Of a stretch of DNA of 64,000 bases, positions 14,801 through 64,000 are shown one piece after another. A program made the position numbers and the translations under genes. Source of the DNA: Woeseiaceae bacterium (GTDB lineage: Bacteria > Pseudomonadota > Gammaproteobacteria > Steroidobacterales > Woeseiaceae); NCBI GenBank assembly GCA_028279985.1, contig JANQMR010000033.1, positions 62,001 through 126,000 of the forward strand, written 5' to 3'. The notes under the pieces were generated by a model, which saw only the letters and a list, made by a program, of their open reading frames with translations, ran no database searches and had not been told where the DNA came from. Positions within the stretch are counted from its first letter, which is position 1. Every line of letters starts with the position of its first letter.

Positions 14801-17329
14801 AGCCCCTGGGCGCGCTTCGGCCAACCGGAGATCAACCTGAATCTGTTGCCAGGCTATGGCGGTACCCAGCGCCTGCCGAGGCGGCTGCATCAGCGGGCCG
14901 GTGCCGCGGGTTTGATCGATGCGCTGCGCCTGATTTACAGCGGGCGCGCGATCGATGCCGGTGAAGCCCTCGGGATCGGACTCGTCGATCAAGTCGTCAG
15001 CGGCGCCGACGGCCCGGTTGCCGTCGCCATGGACCTGTTGCGCCGGTATTTCCGGAACGAAGGTACACTGGTCGCCGCGCTCGCCGAGCGGGGCCGGTAC
15101 CGGGAGAATCTGGAGGCGCCGCTGCCTGGGGTGGATGCCTTGATCGAGGATCCGACGCTGGCGCCCACCCTCGCACAGCTTCGCGCGAGCGGGCGCGGCC
15201 GCGCCGCCGAGCGCATCACCGAAGCCTTGTTGCACGGCGCCGCCGAGGGACTCTCGGCCGGCCTTGCCCGGGAAGCGTCGCTGTTCGCCGAGGCCGTCTG
15301 CGATCCGGCCGCCGGGCCGGTCGGGATTCGGGCGTTTCTGGAAAAACGCAGCGCCGCCTTGCCGCTGCGGTATGCCGAGGTACCGGTGACCGCGGACGAA
15401 GCCGCGCGCAGCGCGCTCGAAGCCGAAGGCCGCCTGTTGCCGCTGGATGCGAGCTTTTTTCCCGGCGTCACGCCGATCCCCGAGTACCACTACGGGATGG
15501 GGATCGCGAAGGATCCCGCGACCGGGCGGCCGCTGCACGCCGATCCGAAAGATACCGAACGGCTCCTGGTGTTCGAAACGCCGCGCCCCGGCGCAAACGA
15601 AGCGCTGGTTTACATCCTTGCCTCCGAGGTCAACTTCAACGACATTTGGGCCGTGACCGGAATTCCGGTGTCGCCCTTCGACAATCGGGATGCCGATCTG
15701 CAGGTCACGGGCTCCGGCGGGGTTGGACTGATTGCCGAGCTCGGCGAAGAGCTCGTTCGCGAAGGACGTCTGTCGGTGGGGCAACTCGTCACTATTTATT
15801 CCGGCCAGAGTGAGCTGCTTTCGCCCGACCAGGGCCTCGACCCGATGGCAGCCAACTTTCACATCCAGGGTTACGAGGTCAACGACGGCAGCCACGCCCA
15901 GTTCCTGGTCGTGCAGGGCCCGCAGCTTCATCCGAAGATCGCGGGGCTTACGATCGAGGAGGCTGGCTCCTACGGACTGACCCAAGGCACGATCCACCGG
16001 GCGCTGTTTCACACCCTGGACGTCATGCCCGGCAAGCGCCTATTCGTCGAGGGCGCCTCGACCGGCACCGGACTGGAATGTCTGCGCGGCGCGCGGCGCA
16101 CGGGACTCGACGTCGTCGGCCTGGTTTCGTCCGAAGAGCGGGCCGAGCGCGTCCGAAGCCATGGCGGCGCGCCGATCAATCGCAAGGACGAACGCTGGGC
16201 TGCGAGCTTCACGCCGGTCCCGGACGATCCTGCCGAGTGGCCTGCCTGGGAGGCCGCCGGTCGCGAGTTCGTCGAGGCCGCCGAGTCGCTGGCCGGCGGT
16301 CCGCTGGACTATGTGGTGTCGCACGCCGGCGAGCGCGCCTTCGGCCGTTCGTTCCAGTTGCTGGGCGATGGTGGCGTGTTGACCTTCTTCGGTGCCTCGT
16401 CCGGTTATCGTTTCTCGTTTCTAGGCAAACCCGGCGAGGAAAAGACCTCGACGATGCTTCGCCGCGCGAGCCTGCGTGCCGGACGCGCGCTACTGGTCGT
16501 TTACGGTCCGGGCGCCGAGGACGGTATCGTCGATTCCCGTGCGGTCGAGGCGATCGAGGTCGGTTGTGCAATCGGCGCGCGGGTTGCCGTGCTGGTCGAT
16601 ACGGTGTCGCAACGCGAGTTCGTGACCTCGCTGGGTTTCGGCGCCCAGTTCGCGGGCGTCGTCAGTCTCGAGGAGATCACGCGGCGTCTCGGCGACGACT
16701 TCGATCCGCCAGGCCCGCTGGCCGAGTTGCCGAATCCGTTCGAGGCATCCGCGGAGTTCAAGGAGGCGGTCCGGCGTTTTTCCGACCGCACACTGAAACC
16801 CGTAGGCTCCGCGATTGCGCCGCTGTTGCGCAGCACGCTGGACCGGCGCGGCCTGCCCGACGTCGTCTTCGAGCGGCGCGGGCGTGATGGCCTGGCGCTG
16901 GCCACCTCGCTGGTCAAGCCCAACGTCGGCGCGGTCGTCTACGCCGAGGATCTCGGCGGCCGCCGGCTGAGCTTCTACGCACCCCAGGTCTGGATGCGTC
17001 AGCGCCGGATCATCATGCCCACGGCCGAGATCCGTGGGACGCACCTGAACACCGCCCGCCAGTTCGCCGAGGTCCAGGAGCGGATCGCCGCCGGCATGAT
17101 CGACGTGGTTCCGCCGGTCACGGTACCGCTCGAGGACCTCCCGGAAGCGCATCAGGCCATGTGGGAGAACCGGCACGCGGGCGCGACCTACGTCGCCACG
17201 CATGCATTGCCGAGGCTCGGGCTCAAGACGCGGGACGAGCTCTATCGCGCCTGGTCCCTGCGTGACGCAGAAGCAAGAGGAGAAAAAATCGGCCGGGTCG
17301 ATACCGGTTCGGCGCACACACTACGATGA
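11885..17329 (+). CDS. pcs: Trifunctional propionyl-CoA synthase
   Basis: The 1,814-residue protein should convert 3-hydroxypropionate, CoA, ATP and NADPH to propionyl-CoA. Three modules are in the known order. The acyl-CoA synthetase module has the AMP-binding motif YTSGSTGKPKGVV at about 414, the HGRSDDVINVSGHR hinge at about 690 and the catalytic-Lys motif TRSGKYMRR at about 788. The enoyl-CoA hydratase module runs from about 860 (FVAGADVKELL, then ALGGGNELVLACDY). The medium-chain reductase module runs from about 1210 (EVNFNDIWAVTGIPVS, GASTGTGLE). Conserved Pcs stretches such as NACFNEVDRHV and AHQAMWENRH are present. Length and order match Chloroflexus Pcs (about 1,820 residues). I prefer ATG 11885, preceded by GGGGAC, over ATG 11873. 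It overlaps mcr by four bases. Confidence 0.97.
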   Translation: MNTAVASGHWGRLASSGDEQAQRRRAAEDPGAYHGDVAASELHWYDAEAGRWLRRDPLTDHWGGFDAAGGAAVGPGVRESAWRPWERAFDDSQAPFFRWFAGARTNACFNEVDRHVLGGRGGRPAFVFEGDRWDPSKHSGRGGPVTELAIDYRRLLFETVLRAEVLSGLGLSKGDRIAFNLPNIPEQLFYTEAAKRLGIIYTPVFGGFSAKTLSDRIADAGARVVVTADGGYRNAEVVSYKEAFTDQALDNFIPLPAALNALEEALRRFDIGAVAKRLDEAVRTRLTGEITVERSDVMRELGRALAREDGLDAELSAKIRTTVARQLADAGHIVERVLVVRYTGQDIVEQARDCWSHELVTEATGRVLERARAAGFDVADTEALFALDDQRFWQALNASHAAVPVDADWPLFVIYTSGSTGKPKGVVHTHGGWLAGITHTMRMVFDAGEDDRIYVIADPGWITGQSYLIAAPLSLGMTSVVAEGSPLFPHAGRFSSIIARHGVTLFKAGSTFLKAVMTDPSSTRDMAAFDMSGLKAATFCAEPVSPAVQQFAMENVCSRYINSYWATEHGGIVFTCPWGELKPLAADAKTWPLPWIEAEVRVALATDGDGRATEWRRAEPGEKGELVITHPYPYLARTIWGNAEQLGSPEWRGDLERFTDVYFSRWSDGLAYTQGDYARLHDDGGFTLHGRSDDVINVSGHRIGTEEIEGAILRDKVLRRDSPVGNAVVVGAPHDEKGETPVAFLIPAPGARLLDDDLDRLKNLVRSEKGITAVPSDFLVVSAFPETRSGKYMRRTLRAILLDETLGDVSTLRNPEIVDEIRATVDEWRSFGQLTAAREIVQTYRYLRVENHELAPGKSVALIVITHPPVNSLNERSLDELNTVLQHIANREETTAVVITGAGSAFVAGADVKELLDVGEAGDLDSARTLPNAAHTAFSTLEQLGKPVIAAVNGPALGGGNELVLACDYVVASPWARFGQPEINLNLLPGYGGTQRLPRRLHQRAGAAGLIDALRLIYSGRAIDAGEALGIGLVDQVVSGADGPVAVAMDLLRRYFRNEGTLVAALAERGRYRENLEAPLPGVDALIEDPTLAPTLAQLRASGRGRAAERITEALLHGAAEGLSAGLAREASLFAEAVCDPAAGPVGIRAFLEKRSAALPLRYAEVPVTADEAARSALEAEGRLLPLDASFFPGVTPIPEYHYGMGIAKDPATGRPLHADPKDTERLLVFETPRPGANEALVYILASEVNFNDIWAVTGIPVSPFDNRDADLQVTGSGGVGLIAELGEELVREGRLSVGQLVTIYSGQSELLSPDQGLDPMAANFHIQGYEVNDGSHAQFLVVQGPQLHPKIAGLTIEEAGSYGLTQGTIHRALFHTLDVMPGKRLFVEGASTGTGLECLRGARRTGLDVVGLVSSEERAERVRSHGGAPINRKDERWAASFTPVPDDPAEWPAWEAAGREFVEAAESLAGGPLDYVVSHAGERAFGRSFQLLGDGGVLTFFGASSGYRFSFLGKPGEEKTSTMLRRASLRAGRALLVVYGPGAEDGIVDSRAVEAIEVGCAIGARVAVLVDTVSQREFVTSLGFGAQFAGVVSLEEITRRLGDDFDPPGPLAELPNPFEASAEFKEAVRRFSDRTLKPVGSAIAPLLRSTLDRRGLPDVVFERRGRDGLALATSLVKPNVGAVVYAEDLGGRRLSFYAPQVWMRQRRIIMPTAEIRGTHLNTARQFAEVQERIAAGMIDVVPPVTVPLEDLPEAHQAMWENRHAGATYVATHALPRLGLKTRDELYRAWSLRDAEARGEKIGRVDTGSAHTLR

Positions 17330-20300
17330 ACAACGATACGATAAAGAACAACGGTCGCGTGGCCGACCGCAGCATCATCCTGACGGGAGCGGCCGGCGGC
17401 ATCGGCCGGTACGTCAGCCGCCGCCTGCTTGCCGAAGGGGCGCGCCTGGTCATGACCGGGCGCAATGCCGAGAAGCTCGAGGCCTTCGTTGCCGAGCTTG
17501 CAGGCGAGGGATTCGATCGGGCGGCGATGGCCACTGCGGTCGGCGACTGCGCGGACCCGGACGTATGCCGGGAGATCGTGGCCGAGGCCATGCGCGCGCA
17601 CGGCCGGCTGGACGTGCTGATCAACAACGCCGGAGCCGCGGGACCCAAGCGCACGCTGCGTTACATTCCGTTCTCCTCGGCCGAGCGCAAGGCCCTGGGC
17701 GACGAGCAAACGATGTACGAATCGGCGATGAACCTGCTCGGCGGACCCTGGCACATGGTTCGCGCCGCCGCACCGGAAATGTCGGCCGGGGGTTCCATCG
17801 TCAATGTTTCGACGATTTTCTCACGGACCCGTTACTTCGGTCGGATCCCCTACGTCGTGCCGAAGTCCGGCCTGAATGCGCTCTCGGCCGGTCTTGCCCG
17901 CGAGCTCGGCGGCGGCGACAAGGGGATTCGGGTGAATACCGTGTTCCCGGGCCCCATCGAATCCGAGCGTATCGACACGGTTTTCGCCGCGATGGACGAG
18001 CTTCAGGGCGTTACCGCCGGCACGACGTCCAAAGAGTTCGTCGACCTGATGATTGCCAAACGGCCCGATGCACAGGGTGAGCTCGAATTCCGTTACCCGA
18101 AGCCGGGGGACGTGGCTTCGGCGATCCTGTTTCTGTCTTCCGACGAATCGGCGGCATTCTCCGGACATGCCTTCGAGGTGACCAACGGCATGCGGGTGCC
18201 GGCGCAAAGCCGCTCGAAGCTCGTGTCCTGGCCCGACGATCGTCTGGTCGACCTGCGCGACAAGGTGATCCTGATACTCGGCGGCGCCGACGTCGACGAA
18301 GCCATGGTGTTCGCCGAGCGCAACATCGCGCGCGGCGCCAGGGTCGTCATGGGATTCCGTACCCTCAACGACGTCGGCCATGCGAGGGCGCGTGTACAGT
18401 CCCTGAATGGCAGCAGTATCCATGTACAACACCTGGACCCCTTGCGTGACGAATCCGTCGTGCGCGTGTTCCGTTTTCTGGGCGATCATTTCGGCCGGCT
18501 GGACGGTGTCATCGTGCTGCCGGCGACCCCGAACGGCCAGCACGGCTATTCGCTGAGCACGGCCGACGACGAGGACGTGGCGGCCTTCGTCGAGACCGAG
18601 GTCGTCGCGCCGGTCGCGTTCGCGTCGGCGCTCGCGCGCAATCTCACGTCCTGGCTGCCGCAGCGCATCGCCCCGGCCGTGACCTTCGTCACCAACCCGG
18701 ACGATCGCCACGGTAACCGCCTGAACGAAATCAAGCGCGCCGCCGTCGAAGCCTTGATCCGGGTCTGGCGTTTCGAGGAGCGCCACGAGGCCGACAAAGG
18801 GGAATGGGGTTGGGACAACGTGCCCAACCAGCTCGTCCGCTACGACAACCACGAACCCGACAACCTGGCGTTCTCGGCCGACTGGACGGCGACGCTCAAT
18901 AACCGCGTTCGCAAGATGGACCCGATCAATCTCTGGGTGCCCAAATCGATCGCGAGGGCGACGGGCAAGGCGTCGATGCCGCAGTCGATCCAGCGTGTGC
19001 TGCCCGGCTTGCATCACGGCAAGACGGCGCTGATAACGGGCGGCAGCCTGGGTATCGGCCTGCAACTCGGACGTTATCTCGCATTAGCGGGTGCACGCGT
19101 GCTGCTCGCCGCGCGCAATACCAAAAAGCTCGATGCCGCGCGCGAGATGATCGTCGACGAGCTGAGAGGCGTCGGCTATTCGCAGCCCGAAGACCGCGTC
19201 TTCGTCGTGGCCGGTATCGACGTCGGCAGCGAAAATGCGCTCGAGGCTTTGTACAAACAGACGATCAAGCTGTTCGGCGAGCTGGATTTCCTGATCAACA
19301 ACGCGGGTATCGCCGGGGCCGAGGAGATGGTCGTCGACATGAGCATCGACGCCTGGAACACGACCATGGAGGCTAACCTGATTTCCAACTACTCGCTGAT
19401 CCGCAAGTTCGCGCCGCGGATGAAAGCACGCGGGTCCGGCGTCATCCTGAATGTCTCGAGTTATTTCGGCGGGGAAAAATACGTTTCCGTGGCCTATCCG
19501 AACCGGGCCGACTACGCGGTATCGAAAGCCGGCCAGCGCGCGCTGGCCGAGATTCTGTCGCGTCACCTGGGTCCTGAAATCCAGATCAACGCGATGGCGC
19601 CGGGCCCGGTCGACGGAGCGCGGCTCCGGGGACTGGGCGGCGCGCCGGGCCTGTTCGACCGCCGCGGCCGCCTGATCATGGAGAACGTGCGCCTGAATCG
19701 CGTGCACGCGGCCATCCTCGCCGCGCTGGGCGAGGGTGTCGGTCCGCACTTCGTCGTGCGTCTTGCCGCCAACGCGCTGGAGGCGCTAGAGCAATGGCCG
19801 GAGGCCCCCGAACCGCTGCGCAGGCTGTTTGCGCAGGTCAAGGAGGGTTACCCATCCGCCAATGCGTCCGGGTATCTGCTCAGCGAATCCATGGCATCCA
19901 AACTGATGAACCGCCTGGTTTCGGGCGGCCAGGTCGAGCAGGGCGTCGCCGATCGCTTTCTGGAGGCTTTCGTGCCGGCGCCCGAGCCCTTTTTCGACGA
20001 GGCGGACGTCAAGCGCGCGGCCGAGAAGATAGAAACGGGTATCCTGGCCCGACTGCATCTGCACAAAATGCCGACCGACGAAGCCATCGGCTTGTCGACG
20101 ACGTTCAGCCTTGCCGACGAAAGCGTCAGCGGCGAGACCTTCCATCCTTCCGGCGGGCTCAAGTTCGACCGCTCGGTCACCGAAGGTGAGATGTTGTTGC
20201 GGCCGGGCGCCGAGGACCTGGTTGCGCTCGAGGGCAAGCACATCGTCGTGCTCGGAGATGCGATGCGCGAGGAGGTGATCGCGATCGCCGAAGGCTTCGG

Positions 20301-20958
20301 TCGATTCAAGGTTGCGAGCATGACGCTTTTGACCCGGACCGAGGAATCGGCGCAAGCGATCCGGCAACGACTCGAATTGCCCGAGGGGATCGCGCTCGAG
20401 ATTACGGCTGTTGGCGATGAGCTCGAAGCCGGGCTGCGGCGCGCGCTCGACGAGCGCAGCTCGATAGACGCGGTCGTAAATACGCCGTTTACCCGCCTGC
20501 CGCTCAATGCGCTGGCCGCGGATGCGGATCGCGACTGGGAGCGCGTGCTGTCGCGCGAGGATTTCGCGGGCGTCGTGCGCGATCATCTGACCCACCATTT
20601 TCGTGTCGCACGGATTGCCGCGCTGATACCGCGTTGCCAGATCGTGCTCGTTACCCCGGATACGTCCCGTGCGTCGACGCGCGAGGAGTTTGCGCTTGCG
20701 ATGTTCATCAAGACGACGATGCATGCGTTTACGGTGACCTTGGGCGTGGAGACCGAACGGCTGCCGACGGAACCCGCGGTCAACCAGGTTCAGCTCACGC
20801 GTCGCGCGCGCTCCGAAGAGCCGAGCAACGAGGAGGAACTCGAAGAGGAGATGGAGCGTCTGGTTTACGCCGTGCTCCAGTGCGCGGTGCCTGCGCCGAG
20901 CCCGAGCCAGAGCCGGTATCTCGCGCGCATCTTCCGCGGTAACGCGGTGACGGTTTGA
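17326..20958 (+). CDS. mcr: Bifunctional malonyl-CoA reductase
   Basis: The 1,210-residue protein should reduce malonyl-CoA to 3-hydroxypropionate via malonate semialdehyde with NADPH. It has two short-chain dehydrogenase halves. The first has LTGAAGGIGRYVSRRL at about 19-34 and the active-site YVVPK near 176. The second has ITGGSLGIGLQLGRYLALAG from about 568 and YAVSK near 729. Each is followed by a degenerate SDR-like region. The second half ends with GETFHPSGGL, FANxxKTT-like and NQVQLTRRARSEEP motifs typical of Mcr. In Chloroflexus (1,219 residues) the N-terminal half reduces the semialdehyde and the C-terminal half reduces malonyl-CoA. The ATGA overlap with pcs implies translational coupling, so both steps from malonyl-CoA to propionyl-CoA are encoded in one unit. 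Confidence 0.97.
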   Translation: MNNDTIKNNGRVADRSIILTGAAGGIGRYVSRRLLAEGARLVMTGRNAEKLEAFVAELAGEGFDRAAMATAVGDCADPDVCREIVAEAMRAHGRLDVLINNAGAAGPKRTLRYIPFSSAERKALGDEQTMYESAMNLLGGPWHMVRAAAPEMSAGGSIVNVSTIFSRTRYFGRIPYVVPKSGLNALSAGLARELGGGDKGIRVNTVFPGPIESERIDTVFAAMDELQGVTAGTTSKEFVDLMIAKRPDAQGELEFRYPKPGDVASAILFLSSDESAAFSGHAFEVTNGMRVPAQSRSKLVSWPDDRLVDLRDKVILILGGADVDEAMVFAERNIARGARVVMGFRTLNDVGHARARVQSLNGSSIHVQHLDPLRDESVVRVFRFLGDHFGRLDGVIVLPATPNGQHGYSLSTADDEDVAAFVETEVVAPVAFASALARNLTSWLPQRIAPAVTFVTNPDDRHGNRLNEIKRAAVEALIRVWRFEERHEADKGEWGWDNVPNQLVRYDNHEPDNLAFSADWTATLNNRVRKMDPINLWVPKSIARATGKASMPQSIQRVLPGLHHGKTALITGGSLGIGLQLGRYLALAGARVLLAARNTKKLDAAREMIVDELRGVGYSQPEDRVFVVAGIDVGSENALEALYKQTIKLFGELDFLINNAGIAGAEEMVVDMSIDAWNTTMEANLISNYSLIRKFAPRMKARGSGVILNVSSYFGGEKYVSVAYPNRADYAVSKAGQRALAEILSRHLGPEIQINAMAPGPVDGARLRGLGGAPGLFDRRGRLIMENVRLNRVHAAILAALGEGVGPHFVVRLAANALEALEQWPEAPEPLRRLFAQVKEGYPSANASGYLLSESMASKLMNRLVSGGQVEQGVADRFLEAFVPAPEPFFDEADVKRAAEKIETGILARLHLHKMPTDEAIGLSTTFSLADESVSGETFHPSGGLKFDRSVTEGEMLLRPGAEDLVALEGKHIVVLGDAMREEVIAIAEGFGRFKVASMTLLTRTEESAQAIRQRLELPEGIALEITAVGDELEAGLRRALDERSSIDAVVNTPFTRLPLNALAADADRDWERVLSREDFAGVVRDHLTHHFRVARIAALIPRCQIVLVTPDTSRASTREEFALAMFIKTTMHAFTVTLGVETERLPTEPAVNQVQLTRRARSEEPSNEEELEEEMERLVYAVLQCAVPAPSPSQSRYLARIFRGNAVTV

Positions 20959-50077: not shown

Positions 50078-50324
50078 GCCGAGATTACTGATGCTCAATT
50101 GACCTCGAATGCTGTCTCATAGATTCTTACATCGGTGACACTCATTCCGAGTTGGCGAGCGATGTTTTGTCAGCCGTTCAGGCGCGCGGACACGTTTTCG
50201 ATAATGTCTTCAGCCTCGTTTGGCTTAAGAGCGAAGGACGCGGCACTCTGGCGAGCCAAATCCAGATCGGCCTCAGGGCCTTCCTCCGAAATCCAAGTGG
50301 TCAGTTCGCGGGCCTTTAGCATTG
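50078..50324 (-). pseudogene. Relic of hipA C-terminus
   Basis: This stretch is nearly identical to 55016-55262, the 3' end of the intact hipA, on the same strand. It encodes the equivalent of HipA residues 334-406 (KARELTTWISEEGPEADLDL onward) but has a TGA in place of the Trp codon after LNG. Homology stops abruptly at 50324, where an unrelated plus-strand gene fragment begins. The 209 bp before it (49869-50077) contain no gene that I can see. Confidence 0.92.
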
Positions 50325-52998: not shown

Positions 52999-53640
52999 CT
53001 ATCTTCGACGTGCGTTAGTGCCTTCCGGGTTGTTGCTGCGGATAGTCACTAGTTCCGGACGCAGGTGCGTGTACCGGCTCAGTGTGCCCCAGCTATCGTG
53101 CAACGTGAACTGTTGGACTTCGATGATCGAATAACCAGCCTTAAATAGCCGTCTCGTGGCCTCGTGTCGGAGATCGTGAAAGTGCAGATCTTGAATGTCC
53201 AACATCCTGCAGGCCTGGCGAAAGGCACTGCCGATTGAGCGGGGCTCGAATGGGAAGATGCGATCTTCATTATGGTCCTGCCGGCAGATGATTTCCCAGG
53301 CTTCAGGCGTGTACTTGAAGGGGCGGACCTGGTCCCGTTCTGTCGGGTGCTTCAAGTCTCGGACAACGCCGGTCTGGTGCTCGCTGTCATTGTCGCTAAA
53401 CATCAGTTCGGTGATCTCACCCTGGCGCCTAGCCGAGTGAATCGCAAACCACATGATGTCATTCATCGGGATATTGGACCGGCGAAGGTCTCGTTTCTCG
53501 AAGAAGTCAGTCAGGGCGTCCAGCTCGTGATGGACTGGACCGAAAATTTTTGAAGAACCTTTTTGAATCAGCGCGTTGCGAGCGTCGCTTTTGAAATGTC
53601 GCAGTTTTGTCGCAGCTGTGTTCACGATCAAAGTGCGCAA
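52999..53640 (-). CDS. Tyrosine recombinase, N-terminally truncated
   Basis: The frame contains only the catalytic domain of a phage-type integrase: the first Arg in HSARRQGEI, RDLKHP, the HxxR box HDLRHEATRRLF and the nucleophile Tyr in GTLSRYTHLRPE. From residue 40 on it is a close relative of the intact integrase at 58,695 (353 residues). The first 150 residues of that protein, with the core-binding domain, are missing, and what precedes the ATG at 53640 does not match it. All catalytic residues remain, but site recognition is probably lost. Confidence 0.8.
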   Translation of the reverse strand: MRTLIVNTAATKLRHFKSDARNALIQKGSSKIFGPVHHELDALTDFFEKRDLRRSNIPMNDIMWFAIHSARRQGEITELMFSDNDSEHQTGVVRDLKHPTERDQVRPFKYTPEAWEIICRQDHNEDRIFPFEPRSIGSAFRQACRMLDIQDLHFHDLRHEATRRLFKAGYSIIEVQQFTLHDSWGTLSRYTHLRPELVTIRSNNPEGTNARRR

Positions 53641-54113: not shown

Positions 54114-54290
54114 ATCAACTCATGCAGGTCTTTCGTGGGCTTGCTCGAGTGGCTGCGAATCGCCTCGGCAATATCCGTATACGTGGCCTCATCGCCATCC
54201 TCCAATCCGAGCAAGCTCATCACGGATAAGAACGAGGTTCGTTGATAGTATCGGTCACGGTTTAGCCCTTTTCCGACCACGCGGCATTCT
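54114..54290 (-). pseudogene. Relic of hipB end / hipA start / hipA middle
   Basis: Bases 54114-54246 match 55390-55522 of the intact hipA (HipA residues about 247-289, FLSVMSLLGLEDGDEATYTD onward). Directly next to them, 54249-54290 match the hipA start and hipB 3' end at 56249-56290. The DNA for HipA residues about 3-246 is deleted. With the relic at 50,078 this is a second hipBA copy in decay. The gap 53641-54113 has no gene. Confidence 0.85.
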
Positions 54291-54898: not shown

Positions 54899-55037
54899 GC
54901 GATGCCGAGCAAGTAGCCGCTTTTGCGATCCGGCACCTCGTGTTGGTTCCTGTATGGCCATTGTCGCTATCGCTCAAAGAGGCTTTCGGTCAGAGTTCCC
55001 TGCGGCATCGTATACCTGCCTCCGAGGTCGCTAATGC

Positions 55038-56258
55038 TCAATTGACTTCGAATGCCGTCTCATAGATTTTGACGTCGGTGACACTCATTCCGAGCTGACG
55101 AGCGATGTCTTGCCAGCCGTTCAGGCGTGTGGACACGTCTTCGATAATTTCTTCAGCCTCGTTTGGCTTGAGAGCAAAAGACGCGGCGGCCTGGCGAGCC
55201 AAATCCAGATCGGCCTCAGGGCCTTCTTCCGAAATCCAAGTGGTCAGTTCGCGGGCCTTTTCTTGTCTCGGAACCGGGTTGAGGTCATACGCGGGCGACA
55301 ATCGCCATTGATCGTTACGGTCGTACAAGAACCCATGGTTGCGAAGGTGATCATCCAGGTTCCCTATGAGCACACTAAACACGACGCGCCGCCATAACTC
55401 ATGCAGGTCTTTCGTGGGCTCGCTCGAGTGGTTGCGAATCGCCTCGGCAATATCCGTATACGTGGCCTCATCGCCATCCTCCAATCCGAGCAAGCTCATC
55501 GCGGACAAGAAAGGGATTCGTTGGCCATCGCGTCGATCGAATCGAGTGATCAGAGCAACCGGCCTGCCGGCAACGTCGATGACCCTGGCCGGAGCAGCAT
55601 CGATACCAACGTGTTTGGCAAGCCTTAATGCGAGGACCTCTCCATGCGGGATACTTCGGTCGTCGTCCGCTTTTGGGAACTTTGCAATCGCCAGGCTTCC
55701 GTCGTTGTCGACAACCGCGGATTTCGGTCGTGCGCCGCCCAGCGGCGACCCTTCATTGAGCAAGAGCCTGAGGTCTTCAGCGGTTTCGGTGTTTGATTGT
55801 ACGGCGTTGGCGGCGTCGACGAGGGCGGGCAATTGAATCAGCGGCGGTACCTGGTAACGGCCGATGTCGTGGTCAAAGTTGCCCTCTCCCTCGCGCTTGT
55901 ATCGAAGAGCACCGATTCGGGTACGATCGATGATCGCAAGCAAGTAGTCGATCTCCGAGAGCGTGCGTTCGTCGCCGGTTTTTCGAAATGCACGCCGGAT
56001 CAGCCGTTGGCCCCACCGATCGGGCGCGGTGTCCCGCATAGCGCCGGGGAGGGCGGACTTTTCCGACCTCGTGTAGAACGACTGTCGAACGCGTGGCAAA
56101 TTCGCCGGATCCAGGGCGAATGCATCAGCGTAATCCAGCCAAGTATCCGCATATTCGAACACGGAGCTCTGGCCGCGTCGCTTTGCAACGTATCGGCAGC
56201 GACCGACCAGGAGTGTTTTGTCCCCGATATCGACATATACCTCAATGGCATCGGTCAC
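55038..56258 (-). CDS. hipA: HipA-family Ser/Thr kinase toxin
   Basis: The 406-residue protein has the HipA N-subdomain (VGRCRYVAKRRGQSSVFEYA), the Gly-rich GSPLGGARPKS loop at about 170-180, ATP-binding LAIAKFPKADDD, the catalytic loop GNLDDHLRNHGFLYD at 299-313 and SPAYDLNP. HipA kinases phosphorylate a translation factor, typically glutamyl-tRNA synthetase, and induce dormancy. It starts with GTG exactly where the hipB stop ends, so translation is coupled. All catalytic motifs are intact. Two partial duplicates of this gene lie at 50,078 and 54,114. Confidence 0.95.
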   Translation of the reverse strand: MTDAIEVYVDIGDKTLLVGRCRYVAKRRGQSSVFEYADTWLDYADAFALDPANLPRVRQSFYTRSEKSALPGAMRDTAPDRWGQRLIRRAFRKTGDERTLSEIDYLLAIIDRTRIGALRYKREGEGNFDHDIGRYQVPPLIQLPALVDAANAVQSNTETAEDLRLLLNEGSPLGGARPKSAVVDNDGSLAIAKFPKADDDRSIPHGEVLALRLAKHVGIDAAPARVIDVAGRPVALITRFDRRDGQRIPFLSAMSLLGLEDGDEATYTDIAEAIRNHSSEPTKDLHELWRRVVFSVLIGNLDDHLRNHGFLYDRNDQWRLSPAYDLNPVPRQEKARELTTWISEEGPEADLDLARQAAASFALKPNEAEEIIEDVSTRLNGWQDIARQLGMSVTDVKIYETAFEVN

Positions 56259-56591
56259 TTACTTTGTCCTTTTCCGGCCGCGCGGCTGAACTTTTTGCGG
56301 TAATCGGTCTTCATCAATATCCAACCCCAGCAGGTCCTTGCGACGATCAGCAGCAGTGCCGAGGCCGTCAGCCAATCCGAGTATCGAAAGCACCGTGGCA
56401 TAGATGCCGATCGACACCGACGGGTCACCCCGTTCGACCTTGTAGAGTGTGCCGCGGCTTATGAAGGCCCGCTCGGCCATCGAGACGGTGGAAATGCGGC
56501 GTTTTTTTCGCGCGATCGCAATATCCTCACCGAGTTTCCTGAGCGCCGCGCGGGCGCTTTTTGGTAGCGAATTGTGAGCTAGCGTCTTCAT
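56259..56591 (-). CDS. hipB: HipB-like Xre-family antitoxin
   Basis: The 110-residue protein carries an HTH_3 domain at about 15-72 (LGEDIAIARKKRRISTVSMA, ERAFISRGTLYKVERGDPSV) and a basic tail, GRKRTK. HipB binds HipA and represses the hipBA promoter. The ATG at 56591 is preceded by an AT-rich region with two palindromes suited to HipB binding. It is longer than E. coli HipB (88 residues) by a C-terminal extension. Confidence 0.93.
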   Translation of the reverse strand: MKTLAHNSLPKSARAALRKLGEDIAIARKKRRISTVSMAERAFISRGTLYKVERGDPSVSIGIYATVLSILGLADGLGTAADRRKDLLGLDIDEDRLPQKVQPRGRKRTK

Positions 56592-57371: not shown

Positions 57372-58150
57372 TCATTCATTGCACCGGACGCCGGGCGCAT
57401 CTGTCACGTGGTTTGCATACGCACGGAAACTGAACGAATCCTAAGTCCAGTCGATGAGAAACTGAGGAGACATCGCTTCCTAGTGCCCGTGGTGGGAGCC
57501 CTTCGACTATCGGATTCGAGTGGACGACGGTCCGGTCGTCAAATCTGAGAAGAAATCAAGTACTTCCTACGCATCGTTGCCATTGAATGTTTCCGGGCGG
57601 GTCGATATCGGTGCGACGTGAGCCCGATTGGCGGTGCGACATGCGCACTCTGACCGGCAGAAAGGGCGGCATTGGTACAGAACAGGTACAAAATAAACAG
57701 AAATATCTAGTTTATTTATAAGGACAATATGCAGGTATAAGGACAATATGCAGGAAAATCCGCGAATGCAAACGACAGTGCCCGTGTCGGTCGCGCCCAT
57801 GATGGACTTTGCCGCTTTTTTTTAGAAATAGCTCTAAAAGAGCTTTCTTAATCAGCTATTTACGAATGTCGAAGATTTTCATGTCGCACCGGTGTCGCAC
57901 TAATGTCGCACCGGTTTAAGTCCCTCCAATTAGCGCAAGAAATAGGCACAAACAAGCATGGCTCGATTCATCGTCAGCCATTCCCTGATGCGCCAGCCCG
58001 CCTCGCTTCATGTCTTGCGTCCTGATTGCCTTACCGAAGCCTGAACCTAGCATTCGGCGCCGCTGGAAAAAACCCGATAGGGAACCAAAAGGCGACCGGT
58101 AACCGGTGAATTTTTGCCGCCTTATTGGGTTTGGTTTGACTTACCGCCGT
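57372..58150. other. 779-bp gene-free region with direct and inverted repeats
   Basis: No credible gene. ggtgcgac occurs at 57610-57617 and, extended to ggtgcgacatg, at 57633-57643. The exact reverse complement catgtcgcacc lies at 57880-57890, followed by more gtcgcac copies to 57915 (atgtcgcaccggt is repeated at 57881 and 57903). A 19-bp tandem duplication (tataaggacaatatgcagg) is at 57717-57754. An 8-bp stem, aaatagct/agctattt, flanks a smaller agctc/gagct hairpin near 57825-57862. It could be a non-autonomous mobile element or a recombination site. Confidence 0.6.
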
Positions 58151-58414
58151 TTATGAGTTTCGCAGCGACCAGACTGCCTTGATTGCCTTCACCATTGCGG
58201 CCTTCTCTTCGTTTAGTTCCGCAAGAAACCCGTCCCAGTAAGCGCGGTCTTCGTCGCTGGGCGGGTCTGTAGCATCTAAGAACTCGTCCCACGATTCGGG
58301 TATTGCTCTTTTTCGGAGTTGATCAATTGCTCGTTGCCATTGGCAATCGGTGAACTTAGCCCCTTGGTCGACTAACGCTTGTTTCAGTAGCATCATATCC
58401 GTGTCATTGATCAT
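58151..58414 (-). CDS. Hypothetical small acidic protein
   Basis: The 87-residue protein has a very good ribosome-binding site (AGGAAGGA before ATG 58414) and a short palindrome, actatttttatagt, upstream that may be an operator. The sequence is helical: DTDMMLLKQALVDQGAKFTD, QRAIDQLRKRAIPESWDEFL, then an acidic loop and the helix AELNEEKAAMVKAIKAVW. I recognise no family. Size and setting, next to an integrase, suggest an antitoxin, anti-restriction or accessory island protein. Confidence 0.65.
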   Translation of the reverse strand: MINDTDMMLLKQALVDQGAKFTDCQWQRAIDQLRKRAIPESWDEFLDATDPPSDEDRAYWDGFLAELNEEKAAMVKAIKAVWSLRNS

Positions 58415-58694: not shown

Positions 58695-59756
58695 TCACCG
58701 ACCGGAGCGAATCACAACCGACTCTGGACGCAAATGCGTGTAACCACTTAGCGCCGCCCAGATTTCGTGCAGCGTGAACTGTTGGACTTCCACAATGGAG
58801 TATCCTGCCTCAAAAAATCTGCTTATTGCCTCGTGTCGCAAGTCATGAAAGCGCAAATCATCAATTTCGAGTATGTGGCACGCGCGAGTAAAAGCGGCCC
58901 CTATCGTCCTGGGTTTGAATGGAAACACGCGATCGTCGTTACGTGGCTGACGGCATATGATCTCCCACGCTTCGTCCGTGTACTTGAATCGTCGAAACAA
59001 TTCTCTGTTTGACGGATGTTTTAGGTTTCGAACAATGCCGGTTCGAGTTTTTTTGTCATTGTCTTGGGCTAGTAGAGATGTGATTTCACTTTGCCTTCGT
59101 GCTGAGTGAATCGCAAACCACATGATGTCGTGCATTGGCAGGCTTGAACATCGTTTTTCCTTCCGTCGAAAGTACTCCGTTAGTGCTGAAAGTTCAGAGT
59201 TTGACGGCCGACGAGTTCGCCTTCTCGACTTTGTAACCAGTTTCTCTGCTCTTAGGACAGAATAGGCGTCGTCGACTACTGTCGGGTCGACCTTGACATC
59301 CCAAGCCACGCGGGCGTAGCGAAGGACAATCCGTAGCCAGACGAGGTCATTGTTCACGGTTGATGCGCTGGCGCCAGCTTTGCGCCGTGCGCGGACATGC
59401 GCAATCACGTCAGAAGCCCTGATTTTCGTTACGTTCCGGGTAGCGAGGTCTGTTTTCTCGAGAAACTGGATTTCGGTCGATTTGGTCCGACCCATGGGAC
59501 GAATTTCGGAGATTTCCCTTCGATACCTCGCCAAAATCTTGCGCAGTGGGCCTCTCCGCGCGAGCTGCTTGCGTGTGGGAAAAGCACTCGCTTTGCTTAG
59601 TTGGCTCTCCCGCCGAGCAGCCCATTGCTTGGCGATGCCAAGTTTACCGAAAGTCTTCGACTCGCGATGAACCAGGCGGCCACCGCGTTTGATTCGCACT
59701 TCTGCGAGATACGCGATGCTGCCGTCGCGACGTTGTCGGGCTCGAAATGTAGCCAC
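58695..59756 (-). CDS. Tyrosine recombinase (phage-type integrase), full length
   Basis: The 353-residue protein has an N-terminal arm-binding region (MATFRARQRRDGSIAYLAEV, the pattern of AP2-like integrase DNA-binding domains), a core-binding domain at about 65-160 and the catalytic domain: Arg in HSARRQSEI, RNLKHP, HxxR in FHDLRHEAISRFF and the nucleophile Tyr in AALSGYTHLRPE. It should integrate and excise the island. A PrtN-like gene follows upstream on the same strand, a common pairing where the small protein controls excision or induction. The attachment sites are not identifiable by eye. Confidence 0.93.
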   Translation of the reverse strand: MATFRARQRRDGSIAYLAEVRIKRGGRLVHRESKTFGKLGIAKQWAARRESQLSKASAFPTRKQLARRGPLRKILARYRREISEIRPMGRTKSTEIQFLEKTDLATRNVTKIRASDVIAHVRARRKAGASASTVNNDLVWLRIVLRYARVAWDVKVDPTVVDDAYSVLRAEKLVTKSRRRTRRPSNSELSALTEYFRRKEKRCSSLPMHDIMWFAIHSARRQSEITSLLAQDNDKKTRTGIVRNLKHPSNRELFRRFKYTDEAWEIICRQPRNDDRVFPFKPRTIGAAFTRACHILEIDDLRFHDLRHEAISRFFEAGYSIVEVQQFTLHEIWAALSGYTHLRPESVVIRSGR

Positions 59757-59954: not shown

Positions 59955-60206
59955 CTAGTTCACCGCAGCCCACTGCTCAGCAGCACGCGCTCGTTGCTTG
60001 TCAATGTGCTGCGCAAGATCGATGGCACTTATGAGCCAGGGAGACTTTTGAGATCCAACTCGGTACGCTGGAATGGGTAGCTGTTGAAGGCACGCTCGCC
60101 GCTTGGCTTTTGGTACAGATAATCCAAAGTACTTCTCGCATATTCGCTCCAGTGGAATCTCTGCTACACCGAACTCTGCTAGAAGACCAAAGTATGTTGA
60201 ACTCAT
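59955..60206 (-). CDS. PrtN-like (pyocin activator) regulator
   Basis: The 83-residue protein from ATG 60206 reads MSSTYFGLLAEFGVAEIPLE, then RICEKYFGLSVPKAKRRACL, LPIPAYRVGSQKSPWLIS and a last helix, AIDLAQHIDKQRARAAEQWA. This is the PrtN/AlpA-like pattern (IPLExVcxxYF...LPixRi..SQKs...v...DLAxYID). PrtN activates pyocin genes in Pseudomonas; small relatives beside integrases act as excision or island regulators. The frame is open further upstream, but those residues do not fit the family. It lies 198 bp from the integrase start. Confidence 0.8.
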   Translation of the reverse strand: MSSTYFGLLAEFGVAEIPLERICEKYFGLSVPKAKRRACLQQLPIPAYRVGSQKSPWLISAIDLAQHIDKQRARAAEQWAAVN

Positions 60207-60846
60207 GATGGGCATACCATCATTGGCTCGTACCGATAGCTGGGGCAGTGCTTTCCGGTAAGCCGGTCGGTAGCGGAATAGGCGAATATGTCGCGGGTTA
60301 AAAGGTACTTGTCCATACGCAAATTCTTGGAGAGCATAGGTTCCACAACAATGCTGCACGGAAAGCCAATGCAGGCTAACCGTCTGGTACTCGAGCTAAA
60401 TAGTTAGTGGAAGCAACGCTTTCGCGCTGAATCCGCTGCGCCCTGAGATGATTTTCTCAAGAGTCGGCACGCTAACGCGATTTGTTGTATCAGGCAAGCG
60501 AGGCTTTCATAGAAAATAGCGCGCTGATCTGTTATGACTCGCGACCGAATCGGCTCCTTCACGCAGCCCACGGAAAATTGCAATCGGTGGGCCTGCGATG
60601 GCCCGAGGTCATGACAGATCTAAAAGGGTATTTGAGGTCGACATCAATGAGAGCATCACTTCGTTCGAGAAGACGATTCGAGATTCTTCGGAGGTATTGA
60701 CAAGCGGCGAGAGGCAGATATTGACTCAAGTTTGCCTCCTAGGAGATCCAAAGCCCGAGGAGAAGCGGCGTCACCGTGCACATCGGTCGTCGCTTCGACT
60801 GCTGCGTAGCAGCACACGAGACGTCAAACTCGCTACACTAAGCGCT
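60207..60846. other. Gap upstream of HNH-NACHT gene
   Basis: No independent gene is convincing. The frame of the HNH-NACHT gene is open upstream to a TGA near 60538, with an ATG at 60598 that would add 83 residues; the first part (VFEVDINESITSFEKTIRDS) is protein-like, the second is Arg/Ser-rich. A hairpin, ctgct-gcgt-agcag, lies at 60799-60812, and a TACACT -10-like hexamer at 60834-60839 would place transcription start at or next to the ATG at 60847. Confidence 0.4.
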
Positions 60847-63800
60847 ATGGTTTCAAACGCAAAAGTGAGAGATGACTTTAGCAAGGCGACGCGTGAGAAG
60901 CTGGCGCAAAGCACGGGCTACAAGTGCTCCAAACCCGATTGCTGCGCGCCCACGAGAGGTGCAACCTCGGATGGTCTGGATACAATTGATATTGGTGTCG
61001 CGGCACACATAACCGCGGCCGCACCCGGCGGGCCACGATACGATCCATCGCTGACAGCTGAGCAGCGTAAGTCATTCGACAACGGAATCTGGCTTTGCCA
61101 AAGTCACGCGAAACTCATAGATTCCGACAAATCTCAGTTTACCGTCGAGCGGCTGAGAGAGTGGAAGAGGTGCGCACAGCGCCGGTCGTTCTTTGAGGTC
61201 GTTTCGGCGCATCGAGAAACAACCAGAGCGTTGGTTTCGGAGCACGATGTTCAAACGACGCTCGATTCGTTGCGCGGCCTCGCGCGAGCGGACATCGCAG
61301 CTTTTCAAAACGCGCCGGGTTGGCCGGCCTATTCGATTGCACTCGATCTAACCCTGTCGGGCGGAGCGGATTCCACGTCCTTCAGCGTGAGCGGGCTGGC
61401 GGCGGGCGTCAGTTCCTTCGACCAGGTTGCGGTTATTGCACCACCTGGCACCGGCAAGACAATCACATTGCTGCAACTGACCGAGGCCGTTCTTGGTGAC
61501 AATTCAATGGTGGCTGTCTACCTCCCGCTTGCTGAATGGGCTGCGGGCTCCGACGACTTCTTTGTATCAGTGCTGAAAAGGAAGGCGTTCAGACGGGGAG
61601 ACATAGACCAGTTCGAGCTGCTCGCACGTCACGGAAAGCTTCTTCTGGTGCTCGATGGCTGGAACGAACTCGACGAATCCTCCAAGCGGCGGGTCCGTAG
61701 TCAGGTAAAGTTCCTCAGGCGAGACTTTCCCGACCTTCATTTGGTTATCAGTTCTCGACACATGGCCTTCGATATACCCATCGACGGTCCAGTCGTGGAG
61801 GTTCAGCCACTCACGGAAGAGCAACAGCTGGAGATCGCCAGGTCGCGACGTGGTTCGGATGGGGAATCGCTGCTCGATCACGTATGGCGAACGCCCGGTC
61901 TCCGGCAGCTGGTGGCGATTCCGCTGTACCTGAACGCCCTCCTTGTCCGAGCGCCCGGAGCATCTTTGCCCACAACCAAAGAAGAGGTCCTTCGATCGTT
62001 CGTGGAGGAACTGGAACGAGACCGGGATAAGCTGGCGACGCTGCGAGAGACACTTCAAGGTGTACATCGGAGGTTCATGGAGGAAATTGCAGTCGAGGCA
62101 ATGCGTCTCGAGACGGTGGCGCTGTCCGAAGTCCAGGCCCGAACCGTCGTTAACGCAGCGCAGCAGAGATTGAGAGATGAAAACCAGATCGCCGATCTAC
62201 TTCAACCGATGAAGGTGCTCGACGGTCTGGTTAGTGCACACATGCTTGTACGGTACGGCGTGGAGGAAGGCGGGGTAGCCTTTCAGCATCAGCAGTTCCA
62301 GGAGTGGTTCGCCTCGTTTCATGTCGAGCGTCTGATGCTCTCTTCGGCGAGAGGTGACGAAGAAGCATCGAAATATCTCAGAGAGACAATCCTCGACATT
62401 CCTGTCTGGGAGGAGGCTATCCTCTTTACGTGCGACCGCGTGTCGCGTTCTGACCGCGATGGCGTACAAGCCGTGGCACAAGCTGTTTTGGAGACGCTCG
62501 GTATCGATCCGCTGCTCGCCGCGCAAATGATCCGGCGCTCATCCGATGACGTTTGGGCTGCGATACGCAGAGATGTCACTGAATTCGTTGCTATATGGCA
62601 TACACCAGGACGCGTGGATCGCGCTGTCGCATTCATGATCGATACTGGGTGCGTGGAGTTCTCAGGATTTGTTTGGCCCATGATCTCGGCCCCCGACGAT
62701 CAAGTGCATCTTGCTGCACTGAGAGCCGGGCGCAGATTTAGACCGGGCGTTCTAGGCGCGAACGCAGGCGCACGGATTGCGGAGCTTTCCAAAGACGTTC
62801 GCAAAAACATCATTTCCGAAATTGCCATGAACGGCGACATGGACGGCATCGAGTTCGCAACGCGCCTGGCTAGCGACGATGCGAGCCAAGAGGTAAAACT
62901 GTCCGTGATTGAGTCCCTGTTGTTTCGGCGCGCTGATCGCTTTGCGAAAGTGATATTGGAATCGGCTACTGACGAGGTTTGGAGGCAACTAGCTGGCAAA
63001 TGGTACCCTCGGGAGATCGATGACGAGGAAATAGCTGCGCGTATACAACAAGAGGTCGACAGGCTTCACGCCGAGGAAACTGATCCCAGTCGAATGCTGT
63101 CAACGCTTATCAGCGTACATCCACATGATGCTGACTCCGAAGAAAAGGTACGTGAACTTGTGCAGAGGATCGATTTCTCCGACAAGGACCAGAATAGCAG
63201 GTGGCTGGTCCACCACGCCCACGAGAAGTACCCGGGCGCGGTGGAATTGGCGCTTCTGTCGCTCCTTGAGCAGGGTAGAGACGTTCCATTCGGTGCCGAC
63301 GACATCCTTCGATCGTCAGATCTTGTGGTAGACGATGGACCGCTAGCCGGTTCTCTTTTGGACAAAACGATACCGCGGTTGGCTGCAGAATCCGCGGCGT
63401 CTGTTATTGGACCAGCAACGACCGGTGAACTCATAGATCAGATATTCGAAGTACGTGCGCGCGTCTCCGCCAATCAAGGTAAGTATGACAAAACTCTCAG
63501 CGAGGAATACCTTCGACTGGTAGGGCTAGTTTCGGGTACCAAGACTAAGCCATTCGTGCAGGCAGTTCTGGACCGGTCAGGTACCGATAGTCTCGAAGAA
63601 ATTGCAATTCTTGCGGACCTTGTTTCCCGGCATGGGGATAGCGTGGAGCGGCATCGTCTCGCGCTGGAGTCCTCCATTCAGGACAGACTGACGGCTGCGG
63701 TTGGCGCGTGGGGCGAACGTCTCTTGATATCCCCGACAGCAACACGCGCCCAGTTCGCCGAAATAGCCGAGGCAGCGGAGCGACTTGAGTCACCGGAGCA

Positions 63801-64000
63801 CGTCGGGATACTACTGAAACTCTTATCCGAGGACCTTGCCCGCCGAAGACAGGCAATTGATGAGTTCATTTCGGCTCGTCAGCAAGGGCGCAATGTCCAG
63901 AACGACGCCCGTATGTCCTGGACGCTTCAGTACAGGCGCGCGTTTGCTGCAATTGGCGACGAGCAAACTATCGAGGCAATGAAGGCGTATCTGCCGGATC
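60847..64000 (+). CDS. HNH nuclease-NACHT STAND NTPase fusion, putative anti-phage protein (3' end beyond window)
   Basis: The frame is open from ATG 60847 to the window end, giving 1,051 residues without a stop. Residues 1-110 form an HNH/McrA-like nuclease domain: zinc Cys27/Cys32 in YKCSKPDC, the H of AAHI at 54, GGPRYD, then the FDNGIWLCQSHAKLID block with Asn79, Cys84 and His87. Residues 185-480 are a NACHT-type NTPase: Walker A APPGTGKT at 198-205, Walker B LLLVLDGWNEL with Asp270, and the sensor-like ISSRHM. The remainder is a long alpha-helical repeat region, the expected target sensor. Bacterial STAND proteins with N-terminal nucleases (Avs, bNACHT) recognise phage proteins and degrade DNA. 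The neighbouring integrase, PrtN and toxin-antitoxin genes fit a defence island. Confidence 0.85.
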   Translation, partial: MVSNAKVRDDFSKATREKLAQSTGYKCSKPDCCAPTRGATSDGLDTIDIGVAAHITAAAPGGPRYDPSLTAEQRKSFDNGIWLCQSHAKLIDSDKSQFTVERLREWKRCAQRRSFFEVVSAHRETTRALVSEHDVQTTLDSLRGLARADIAAFQNAPGWPAYSIALDLTLSGGADSTSFSVSGLAAGVSSFDQVAVIAPPGTGKTITLLQLTEAVLGDNSMVAVYLPLAEWAAGSDDFFVSVLKRKAFRRGDIDQFELLARHGKLLLVLDGWNELDESSKRRVRSQVKFLRRDFPDLHLVISSRHMAFDIPIDGPVVEVQPLTEEQQLEIARSRRGSDGESLLDHVWRTPGLRQLVAIPLYLNALLVRAPGASLPTTKEEVLRSFVEELERDRDKLATLRETLQGVHRRFMEEIAVEAMRLETVALSEVQARTVVNAAQQRLRDENQIADLLQPMKVLDGLVSAHMLVRYGVEEGGVAFQHQQFQEWFASFHVERLMLSSARGDEEASKYLRETILDIPVWEEAILFTCDRVSRSDRDGVQAVAQAVLETLGIDPLLAAQMIRRSSDDVWAAIRRDVTEFVAIWHTPGRVDRAVAFMIDTGCVEFSGFVWPMISAPDDQVHLAALRAGRRFRPGVLGANAGARIAELSKDVRKNIISEIAMNGDMDGIEFATRLASDDASQEVKLSVIESLLFRRADRFAKVILESATDEVWRQLAGKWYPREIDDEEIAARIQQEVDRLHAEETDPSRMLSTLISVHPHDADSEEKVRELVQRIDFSDKDQNSRWLVHHAHEKYPGAVELALLSLLEQGRDVPFGADDILRSSDLVVDDGPLAGSLLDKTIPRLAAESAASVIGPATTGELIDQIFEVRARVSANQGKYDKTLSEEYLRLVGLVSGTKTKPFVQAVLDRSGTDSLEEIAILADLVSRHGDSVERHRLALESSIQDRLTAAVGAWGERLLISPTATRAQFAEIAEAAERLESPEHVGILLKLLSEDLARRRQAIDEFISARQQGRNVQNDARMSWTLQYRRAFAAIGDEQTIEAMKAYLPD

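What the first reader, a model, noticed from the sequence alone, without database searches (positions are those of the whole stretch)
60598..64000. HNH-nuclease/NACHT fusion as a candidate anti-phage STAND system
The sequence shows an N-terminal HNH-like domain (C27/C32, H54, N79, C84/H87 pattern), a clean NACHT NTPase (APPGTGKT; LLLVLDGWNEL) and more than 500 residues of helical repeats, next to an integrase, a PrtN-like gene and toxin-antitoxin remnants. Known Avs and bNACHT systems use the same sensor-NTPase-effector logic with other effectors. An HNH effector on a NACHT core is, as far as I know, little characterised. The downstream part and any partner genes are outside the window.
Basis: partly seen in the sequence, partly recalled or inferred. 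Interest (0 to 1): 0.78.

Follow-up and report, generated by a model that had tools for sequence, protein, structure and literature searches.

The report
NLR-like phage-defence protein with HNH-like head
The gene encodes a large NLR-like protein, probably an immune sensor, on a mobile island rich in defence genes; its front end has the fold of a DNA-cutting HNH enzyme but lacks one of that enzyme's usual active-site residues in the relatives examined, so whether it really cuts DNA is an open and easily tested question.

The parts
60847..64000 (+). HNH-like/NACHT/helical-solenoid/NCAB2 gene, part inside the window; stop lies outside at C5:127256 (L002:5256); 1,469 aa from this ATG (a GTG six codons further on is equally possible)
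   Evidence: start choice from homologue N-termini
60598..60846 (+). In-frame upstream extension of the longest ORF, probably not translated
   Evidence: most homologues start near residue 84-90; no Pfam match
60874..61182 (+). HNH-like domain, Cap5 type, third His absent
61246..62517 (+). NACHT NTPase, HD and winged-helix module (Walker A 61438-61461, Walker B 61639-61671, FQHQQFQEW 62281-62307)
62518..64000 (+). Start of the helical solenoid (HEAT-like), continuing beyond the window to about residue 1464 of the long ORF; NCAB2 domain follows at C5:126990-127226
   Evidence: homologue model; HEAT_2 below cut-off, 5e-5; NCAB2 1.7e-21; NCAB2 place
57787..57808 (+). 22-bp exact repeat of the dusA 5' end (other copy at extended coordinate 73642, L002:13642-13663); left border of the 15.9-kb element
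   Evidence: dusA identity by NCBIfam, 5.9e-151
58695..59756 (-). Tyrosine integrase of the element
   Evidence: PF00589 7.7e-11
59955..60359 (-). PrtN/pyocin-activator-like regulator
   Evidence: PF11112 1.3e-16

Best explanation
It is a single-gene, NLR-type (STAND) anti-phage protein carried by a dusA-integrated mobile island. Inferred mechanism: the C-terminal helical solenoid plus NCAB2 senses a phage-associated cue; the NACHT-WHD module exchanges nucleotide and oligomerises as in NLRC4; this brings the N-terminal HNH-like domains together, as in the activated Cap5 tetramer, and they cut DNA, aborting infection. Shown here: intact gene, predicted domain folds, invariant P-loop, invariant H54/N79/zinc cysteines, an N-terminal slot filled by other domains (nuclease-like by motif) in sister clades, defence-gene context. 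Inferred: sensing, oligomerisation, DNA cleavage with an active site that lacks the canonical third His/Asn, and cell-level protection.
For: Intact ORF. HNH fold and Cap5 homology. NLRC4-like NACHT-WHD. NCAB2, a NACHT-associated Pfam domain. H54, N79, C27, C32, C84 invariant in 48 of 48. Domain swapping on the chassis: N-termini read as Mrr-like (GxD...QCK motif) in L074 and 8 other listed relatives, and 4 read as Cap4-like, of which the 3 scanned match PADLOC DUF626_VIII at 2.6e-14, 1.1e-6 and 0.0012; an N-terminus that looks like two TM helices (L061) falls inside the HNH clade. Island with SIR2-type and pAgo_I proteins (8e-164, 3.5e-129), TIR and Phd/ParE between dusA repeats. Sporadic distribution: a full-length match in only the window's own genome among 61 of its genus. 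Neighbour proteins of other loci (132 of 193 eligible, from 25 of 35 non-redundant loci) match 110 PADLOC families at 1e-10, 25 of them shown, including CBASS cyclase, phospholipase effector, AbiEii, AbiU, GajB, QatC and a DRT helicase, against 11 families for 104 control proteins.
Against: The residue that is the third H in most Cap5-type structures is G155/A123/S22/E1 in the 301 readable of 332 homologues (31 lack that part), and the residue before H54 is A/S/G/C/N, so the usual metal ligands are missing. The same domain occurs beside other enzymatic modules in one chain (TIR-HNH-STAND P0208, HNH-PNP-STAND P0166), and C-terminal TIR fusions occur (P0065, P0083, P0090), so it need not be the sole effector. 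The Mrr-like assignment rests on motif reading and a sub-threshold Pfam hit (0.092), with no PDB match; Pfam gave no nuclease hit for the three Cap4-like proteins scanned. L075 and L076-L079 have N-termini that I could not assign. No defence or cleavage data. The PADLOC comparison counts families, not proteins; its control comes from other genomes and itself had hits.
Confidence: 0.57

Rival explanations
1. The HNH-like domain is no longer a metal-dependent nuclease. It is a conserved nuclease-derived module (DNA binding, end recognition, or an effector-associated adaptor) on NLR-like proteins, and the toxic output comes from a partner or from another mechanism such as NTP depletion or scaffold formation.
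For: No third His or Asn in 301 readable of 332 homologues and no Asp before H54 in the 286 scored; a family-specific invariant R74 that is not Arg in the five solved rows printed; co-occurrence with TIR or PNP in single proteins; a tight clade of 14 of 76 loci has another STAND gene directly upstream, with a weak Cap4-nuclease match in the copy scanned.
Against: H54 and N79 (the general-base and Asn positions) are strictly conserved (48 of 48), more than a pure binding fold needs; sister clades replace the domain with domains that read as other nucleases; 8ysq, a solved SAVED-HNH protein, also has G at the third position, though its activity could not be looked up.
Confidence: 0.29
2. It works only as part of a multi-gene system (a second STAND partner, or the neighbouring TIR/DUF6338 genes), and the copy here is an orphan or uses a neighbour in trans.
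For: A gene of about 1,316 aa upstream in 14 of 76 loci, with AbiEi/AbiEii-type genes further upstream in L032 and AbiEii-like genes clustered at 6 loci; a second NACHT protein next to the gene in L040; TIR and DUF6338 genes follow in the window's element.
Against: Island neighbours are not shared with other loci: phmmer of 15 local proteins against 863 neighbour ORFs of 76 loci gave only an integrase in L027 and a TIR match in L031; apart from that clade no cluster with a fixed adjacent position covered more than a few loci.
Confidence: 0.09
3. The gene is cargo with another role (regulation, element stabilisation, inter-element conflict) rather than anti-phage defence.
For: STAND proteins such as MalT are regulators (recalled); the gene rides on an integrative element next to a PrtN-like regulator.
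Against: HNH-fold N-terminus, NACHT + NCAB2 chassis, defence-gene neighbours in the window and elsewhere, sporadic distribution.
Confidence: 0.05

Closest known systems
Bacterial NACHT (bNACHT) NLR-related defence proteins, e.g. bNACHT25/32
   Same: N-terminal effector slot, central NACHT module, C-terminal sensor; a nuclease N-terminus required for defence in bNACHT25/32 (PMC12169576, passages seen)
   Different: bNACHT25/32 carry PD-(D/E)XK and NCH1; here the N-terminus is HNH-like and the C-terminus a long solenoid + NCAB2. Placement in the published clades could not be checked because the Kibby 2023 paper is not held
CBASS Cap5 (HNH-SAVED) effectors
   Same: Homologous HNH domain with zinc knuckle and conserved H/N; oligomerisation-activated DNA degradation is the mechanistic precedent (PMC8568899, abstract passage and section 9; PMC12804361, passages)
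   Different: No SAVED domain; NACHT switch instead of cyclic-dinucleotide sensing; the third catalytic His of 8fm1 (PsCap5), 7rwk, 7rwm and 9om4 is G/A/S/E here, as it is G in 8ysq
GreA-PIN and TRADD-N conflict proteins with an interchangeable HNH effector (Kaur et al. 2021)
   Same: HNH listed among swappable N-terminal effectors (PMC8195603, section 7 and passages)
   Different: The HNH mentions seen concern the EAD10/GreA-PIN and TRADD-N families; no NACHT-NCAB2 architecture and no remark on a missing third His in the text seen
Avs (AVAST) STAND systems
   Same: Sensor-NTPase-nuclease logic (general knowledge)
   Different: No Avs model among the PADLOC hits of this protein at E 0.01

Membership tests
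Bacterial NACHT/NLR-related (bNACHT) proteins | NACHT P-loop NTPase with Walker A/B and NLR-like winged-helix module | tested here: met
Bacterial NACHT/NLR-related (bNACHT) proteins | Tripartite order: N-terminal effector-type domain, NACHT, C-terminal sensor with NACHT-associated C-terminal domain | tested here: met
   HNH fold, NACHT, helical solenoid (on a homologue), NCAB2 1.7e-21
Bacterial NACHT/NLR-related (bNACHT) proteins | NTP-dependent oligomerisation and protection against phage | not testable with these tools
   needs experiment
HNH (beta-beta-alpha-metal) nucleases, Cap5 type | HNH fold with zinc knuckle | tested here: met
HNH (beta-beta-alpha-metal) nucleases, Cap5 type | General-base His and central Asn | tested here: met
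   H54 and N79 invariant in 48 of 48
HNH (beta-beta-alpha-metal) nucleases, Cap5 type | Third residue (His/Asn) after the second zinc ligand, a metal ligand in the canonical mechanism | tested here: not met
   G155/A123/S22/E1, no His or Asn, in the 301 readable of 332 proteins; His in 7rwk, 7rwm, 9om4, 8fm1 but Gly in 8ysq
HNH (beta-beta-alpha-metal) nucleases, Cap5 type | DNA cleavage | not testable with these tools
   needs biochemistry
CBASS HNH-SAVED effector | SAVED sensor and an adjacent CD-NTase | tested here: not met
   PADLOC SAVED_HNH match limited to residues 94-214; NACHT follows; no cyclase model among the hits of the nine neighbouring proteins scanned with it
Avs (AVAST) | Avs-family sensor/NTPase sequence | tested here: inconclusive
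   no Avs model among PADLOC hits at E 0.01; not compared by structure to Avs sensors

The most novel reading that the evidence does not exclude
The N-terminal module is an uncatalogued HNH-derived domain class, unmatched by Pfam, that has lost the canonical metal ligands while keeping the general-base His, the Asn and the zinc knuckle. It serves as a common N-terminal module of NLR-like proteins (NACHT-NCAB2, TPR, WD40, pentapeptide, and TIR/PNP co-fusions) and of stand-alone prophage cargo genes such as P2-EC46 ORF2. It either cuts nucleic acid by a non-canonical chemistry or reads DNA for the receptor.
Probability: 0.35. Interest if true: 0.74.

Novelty: new variant of a known kind. Interest (0 to 1): 0.52.

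Why it matters
If the module cuts DNA, the family shows an HNH active site working without its usual metal ligands, switched by an NLR-like NACHT engine. If it does not, a widespread domain labelled HNH endonuclease in some records (Rhizobium plasmids) is really a sensor or adaptor. Either result follows from a few point mutants. The family is large, no Pfam or NCBIfam model recognises its HNH-like domain in this protein, and its chassis has exchanged N-terminal domains between clades.

Tried and rejected
Rejected: a broken gene (intact); an 83-residue N-terminal domain (unsupported); H87 as the catalytic third His; a conserved operon partner for this copy. Led nowhere: literature identification of PDB 8ysq and 9om4 (one search found two unrelated papers); the term search for HNH-NACHT, NACHT-HNH, NCAB2 and HNH-STAND returned 0 papers, and bNACHT with HNH returned one survey of Bacillus cereus group defences with one mention of each (listing only); C-terminal Foldseek gave only generic HEAT-type matches (CAND1, importin; best E 3.3e-5, TM about 0.16); PDB sequence search of the N-terminus of L074 gave nothing. 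Model coordinates were not in the script box, so active-site distances (for example R74 to H54) were not measured. The host taxon was not determined.

Limits and dropped rows: the protein searches list only the best 120 of 240, 155 and 321 hits and admit only proteins of 0.55 to 1.75 times the query length, so small HNH proteins are outside the 332. One small relative outside the NACHT family, L081, does have His at position 88 (CRNCHK). Of the 332, 286 matched the motif pattern; of the other 46, 15 were readable at position 88 by BLAST (A10, G5) and 31 were not, being N-truncated or with another N-terminus. In the loci scan L060, L061, L065 and L074-L079 did not match the pattern (L060 is HNH by eye). 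61 of 193 neighbour proteins and 10 of 35 loci were not scanned with PADLOC because of size limits. Near-identical loci and L065 and L069 were left out of the tree.
Full report
WHAT IS THERE. The window is G000:C5:62001-126000. The frame starting at 60598 runs on past the window edge to a stop at C5:127256, 1,552 codons in all. Homologues place the start further in: of the 108 measurable of 120 listed homologues, 60 have exactly 47 residues before the HNH histidine and 76 have 47-51. In the window the GTG at 60865 would give 47 and the ATG at 60847 would give 53.

THE ACTIVE SITE. C27, C32, H54, N79 and C84 are invariant in 48 of 48 aligned homologues; position 87 is H in 36 and C in 12; position 88 is G in 28, A in 18, S in 2. 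286 match the motif pattern: position 87 is H207/C67/D10/Y1/N1, position 88 is G150/A113/S22/E1, and the residue before H54 is A264/S16/G4/C1/N1. Of the remaining 46, 15 could be read at position 88 by BLAST (A10, G5) and 31 lack that part or carry another N-terminus. So 301 of 301 readable proteins have neither His nor Asn there. In the alignments to solved structures, position 87 falls on the zinc-ligand H or C and position 88 on the following residue: His in 7rwk, 7rwm, 9om4 and 8fm1, but Gly in 8ysq (a sixth hit, 9dif, was not printed). One small non-NACHT relative, L081, has His at 88. From general knowledge (recalled: Cas9 D839/H840/N863, T4 endonuclease VII D40/H41/N62), the residue before the general base and the residue at position 88 are the usual metal ligands. 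Both are missing here. The fold, the zinc site, the general base and the Asn are kept, and the metal ligands are not.

DISTRIBUTION AND ARCHITECTURE. One search found 240 proteins (120 listed). One search found 78 loci in named genomes (among them Pseudomonadota, Desulfobacterales, Nitrospira, Acidobacteriota, Opitutales, Phycisphaerales); 70 carry the HNH motif (69 by pattern plus L060 by eye), of which 68 are HNH-NACHT and two (L080, L081) are other proteins with the domain. In the window's genus only the window's genome has a full-length match among 61; G468 has a 27% identical chassis match without the HNH region and G458 a weak HNH-only match. The HNH-like domain also sits on other large proteins whose listed Pfam domains are TPR, WD40, HEAT, pentapeptide or PF24407; in P0166 it precedes a nucleosidase/PNP-type domain (residues 134-374) and in P0208 it follows a TIR domain (residues 6-118). 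P0065, P0083 and the N-truncated P0090 carry a TIR domain in the stretch after NCAB2 (NCBIfam gave nothing for P0065). Stand-alone versions occur in the P2-EC46 Z region (ORF2) and on an E. coli IncFIB plasmid, with S and G at position 88.

DOMAIN SWAPPING. Relatives of the more distant chassis L074 (108 new of 120 listed) include 80 with the HNH motif; the other 28 are N-truncated or carry N-termini that I read as Mrr-like (9 including L074's own copy; GxD...QCK motif, Mrr_cat only at 0.092, no PDB match) or Cap4-like (4; the 3 scanned match PADLOC DUF626_VIII, none matched a Pfam nuclease). On a FastTree of 81 NACHT regions, midpoint-rooted, the HNH proteins form one group, the Mrr-like and Cap4-like ones another (0.993), and L061, whose N-terminus looks like two transmembrane helices and which is truncated, falls inside the HNH group next to P0086 (0.857). 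L075 and L076-L079 have unassigned N-termini. The HNH-like domain thus occupies a slot that sister clades fill with other domains, apparently nucleases; this and the conserved H54/N79 are why nuclease remains the first choice.

GENOMIC SETTING. A 22-bp exact repeat at 57787-57808 recurs at the 5' end of dusA (extended coordinate 73642; DusA by NCBIfam 5.9e-151), with no clear similarity beyond the core, giving a 15.9-kb element. It carries a tyrosine integrase, a PrtN-like regulator, the HNH-NACHT gene, DUF6338, TIR (9e-21), Phd/ParE, a SIR2-type protein (PADLOC Aga_SIR2-PNTD1-PNTD2 8e-164) and a short pAgo (3.5e-129), followed by dusA. A 16-bp dusA-like match at 53528, shortly after an integrase remnant loses similarity to the intact one, suggests an older neighbouring insertion with a HipA gene and weakly BrnT/CopG-like genes. 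Elsewhere, 14 of 76 loci share an upstream gene of about 1,316 aa that ends within a few bases of the HNH-NACHT start in the copies inspected; in L032, the copy scanned, it has a weak Cap4-nuclease match (0.0052) and an AAA/STAND region and is preceded by AbiEi and AbiEii genes; these loci are closely related to each other. Neighbour proteins of 25 loci (132 of 193) matched 110 PADLOC families at 1e-10 against 11 for 104 control proteins from nine arbitrary stretches of other genomes. Families overlap and proteins were not counted, so this is a qualitative contrast.

MECHANISM. Shown: anatomy, conservation, swap, context. Inferred: the solenoid/NCAB2 senses, NACHT oligomerises, the HNH-like heads pair and cut DNA, as Cap5 does after oligomerisation (PMC8568899, abstract passage and section 9; PMC12804361, passages) and as the PD-(D/E)XK heads of bNACHT25/32 do on activation (PMC12169576, passages). 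The weak link is catalysis without the usual ligands.

PRIOR WORK. HNH is named as one of several swappable effectors in Kaur et al. 2021 (PMC8195603, section 7 and passages), in other protein families. Term searches for HNH-NACHT, NACHT-HNH, NCAB2 and HNH-STAND gave 0 papers, and bNACHT with HNH gave one survey paper with one mention of each (open-licence library only). The Kibby 2023 bNACHT paper is not held, so its clades and effector list could not be checked and may already include HNH. The architecture as such should not be called new; the loss of the third residue throughout the family and the breadth of the domain were not found in what was seen.

VERDICT. Observation confirmed with two corrections (start, third His). 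Interpretation partly supported. New variant of a known kind; interest 0.52.

Noticed in passing
L002:9233-13317 (extended window coordinates 69233-73317): SIR2-type protein and overlapping short pAgo gene on the same element, resembling a SPARSA-type system (PADLOC 8e-164 and 3.5e-129).
   Followed up: partly
window 57787-57808 and L002:13642-13663; window 53528-53543: dusA 5'-end core repeats marking one clear and one probable older insertion; dusA acts as an integration site here.
   Followed up: yes
window 50079-50317 with 55022-55260; 54117-54244 with 55396-55523: Repeated pieces of a HipA-like gene (90% and 94.5% DNA identity) beside a HipA gene with an HTH partner at 55038-56591, suggesting local duplication and decay.
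   Followed up: partly
window 58151-58414 (-): 87-aa ORF between the att repeat and the integrase with a weak PADLOC match (0.0027) to a SAVED-HNH model, outside its HNH part.
   Followed up: no
L032:4300-10011 and 13 related loci: AbiEi/AbiEii pair (in L032) and a gene of about 1,320 aa with a weak Cap4-nuclease match and a STAND region directly upstream of the HNH-NACHT gene: a possible two-NTPase tandem system.
   Followed up: partly
L040:14494-18492: A second NACHT protein (1,333 aa) is the next ORF downstream of the HNH-NACHT gene.
   Followed up: no
L103 (Rhizobium etli p42d), 16912-20387: S8 peptidase next to an ATP-binding protein close to the HNH-NACHT gene, reminiscent of the IetAS defence pair (name recalled, not tested).
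   Followed up: no
P0065, P0083, P0090: TIR domain in the stretch after NCAB2 in otherwise standard members.
   Followed up: partly
L100:488-1594 (P2-EC46 ORF2): Stand-alone HNH-like protein in the P2 Z lysogenic-conversion region, with Ser at the third catalytic position.
   Followed up: partly
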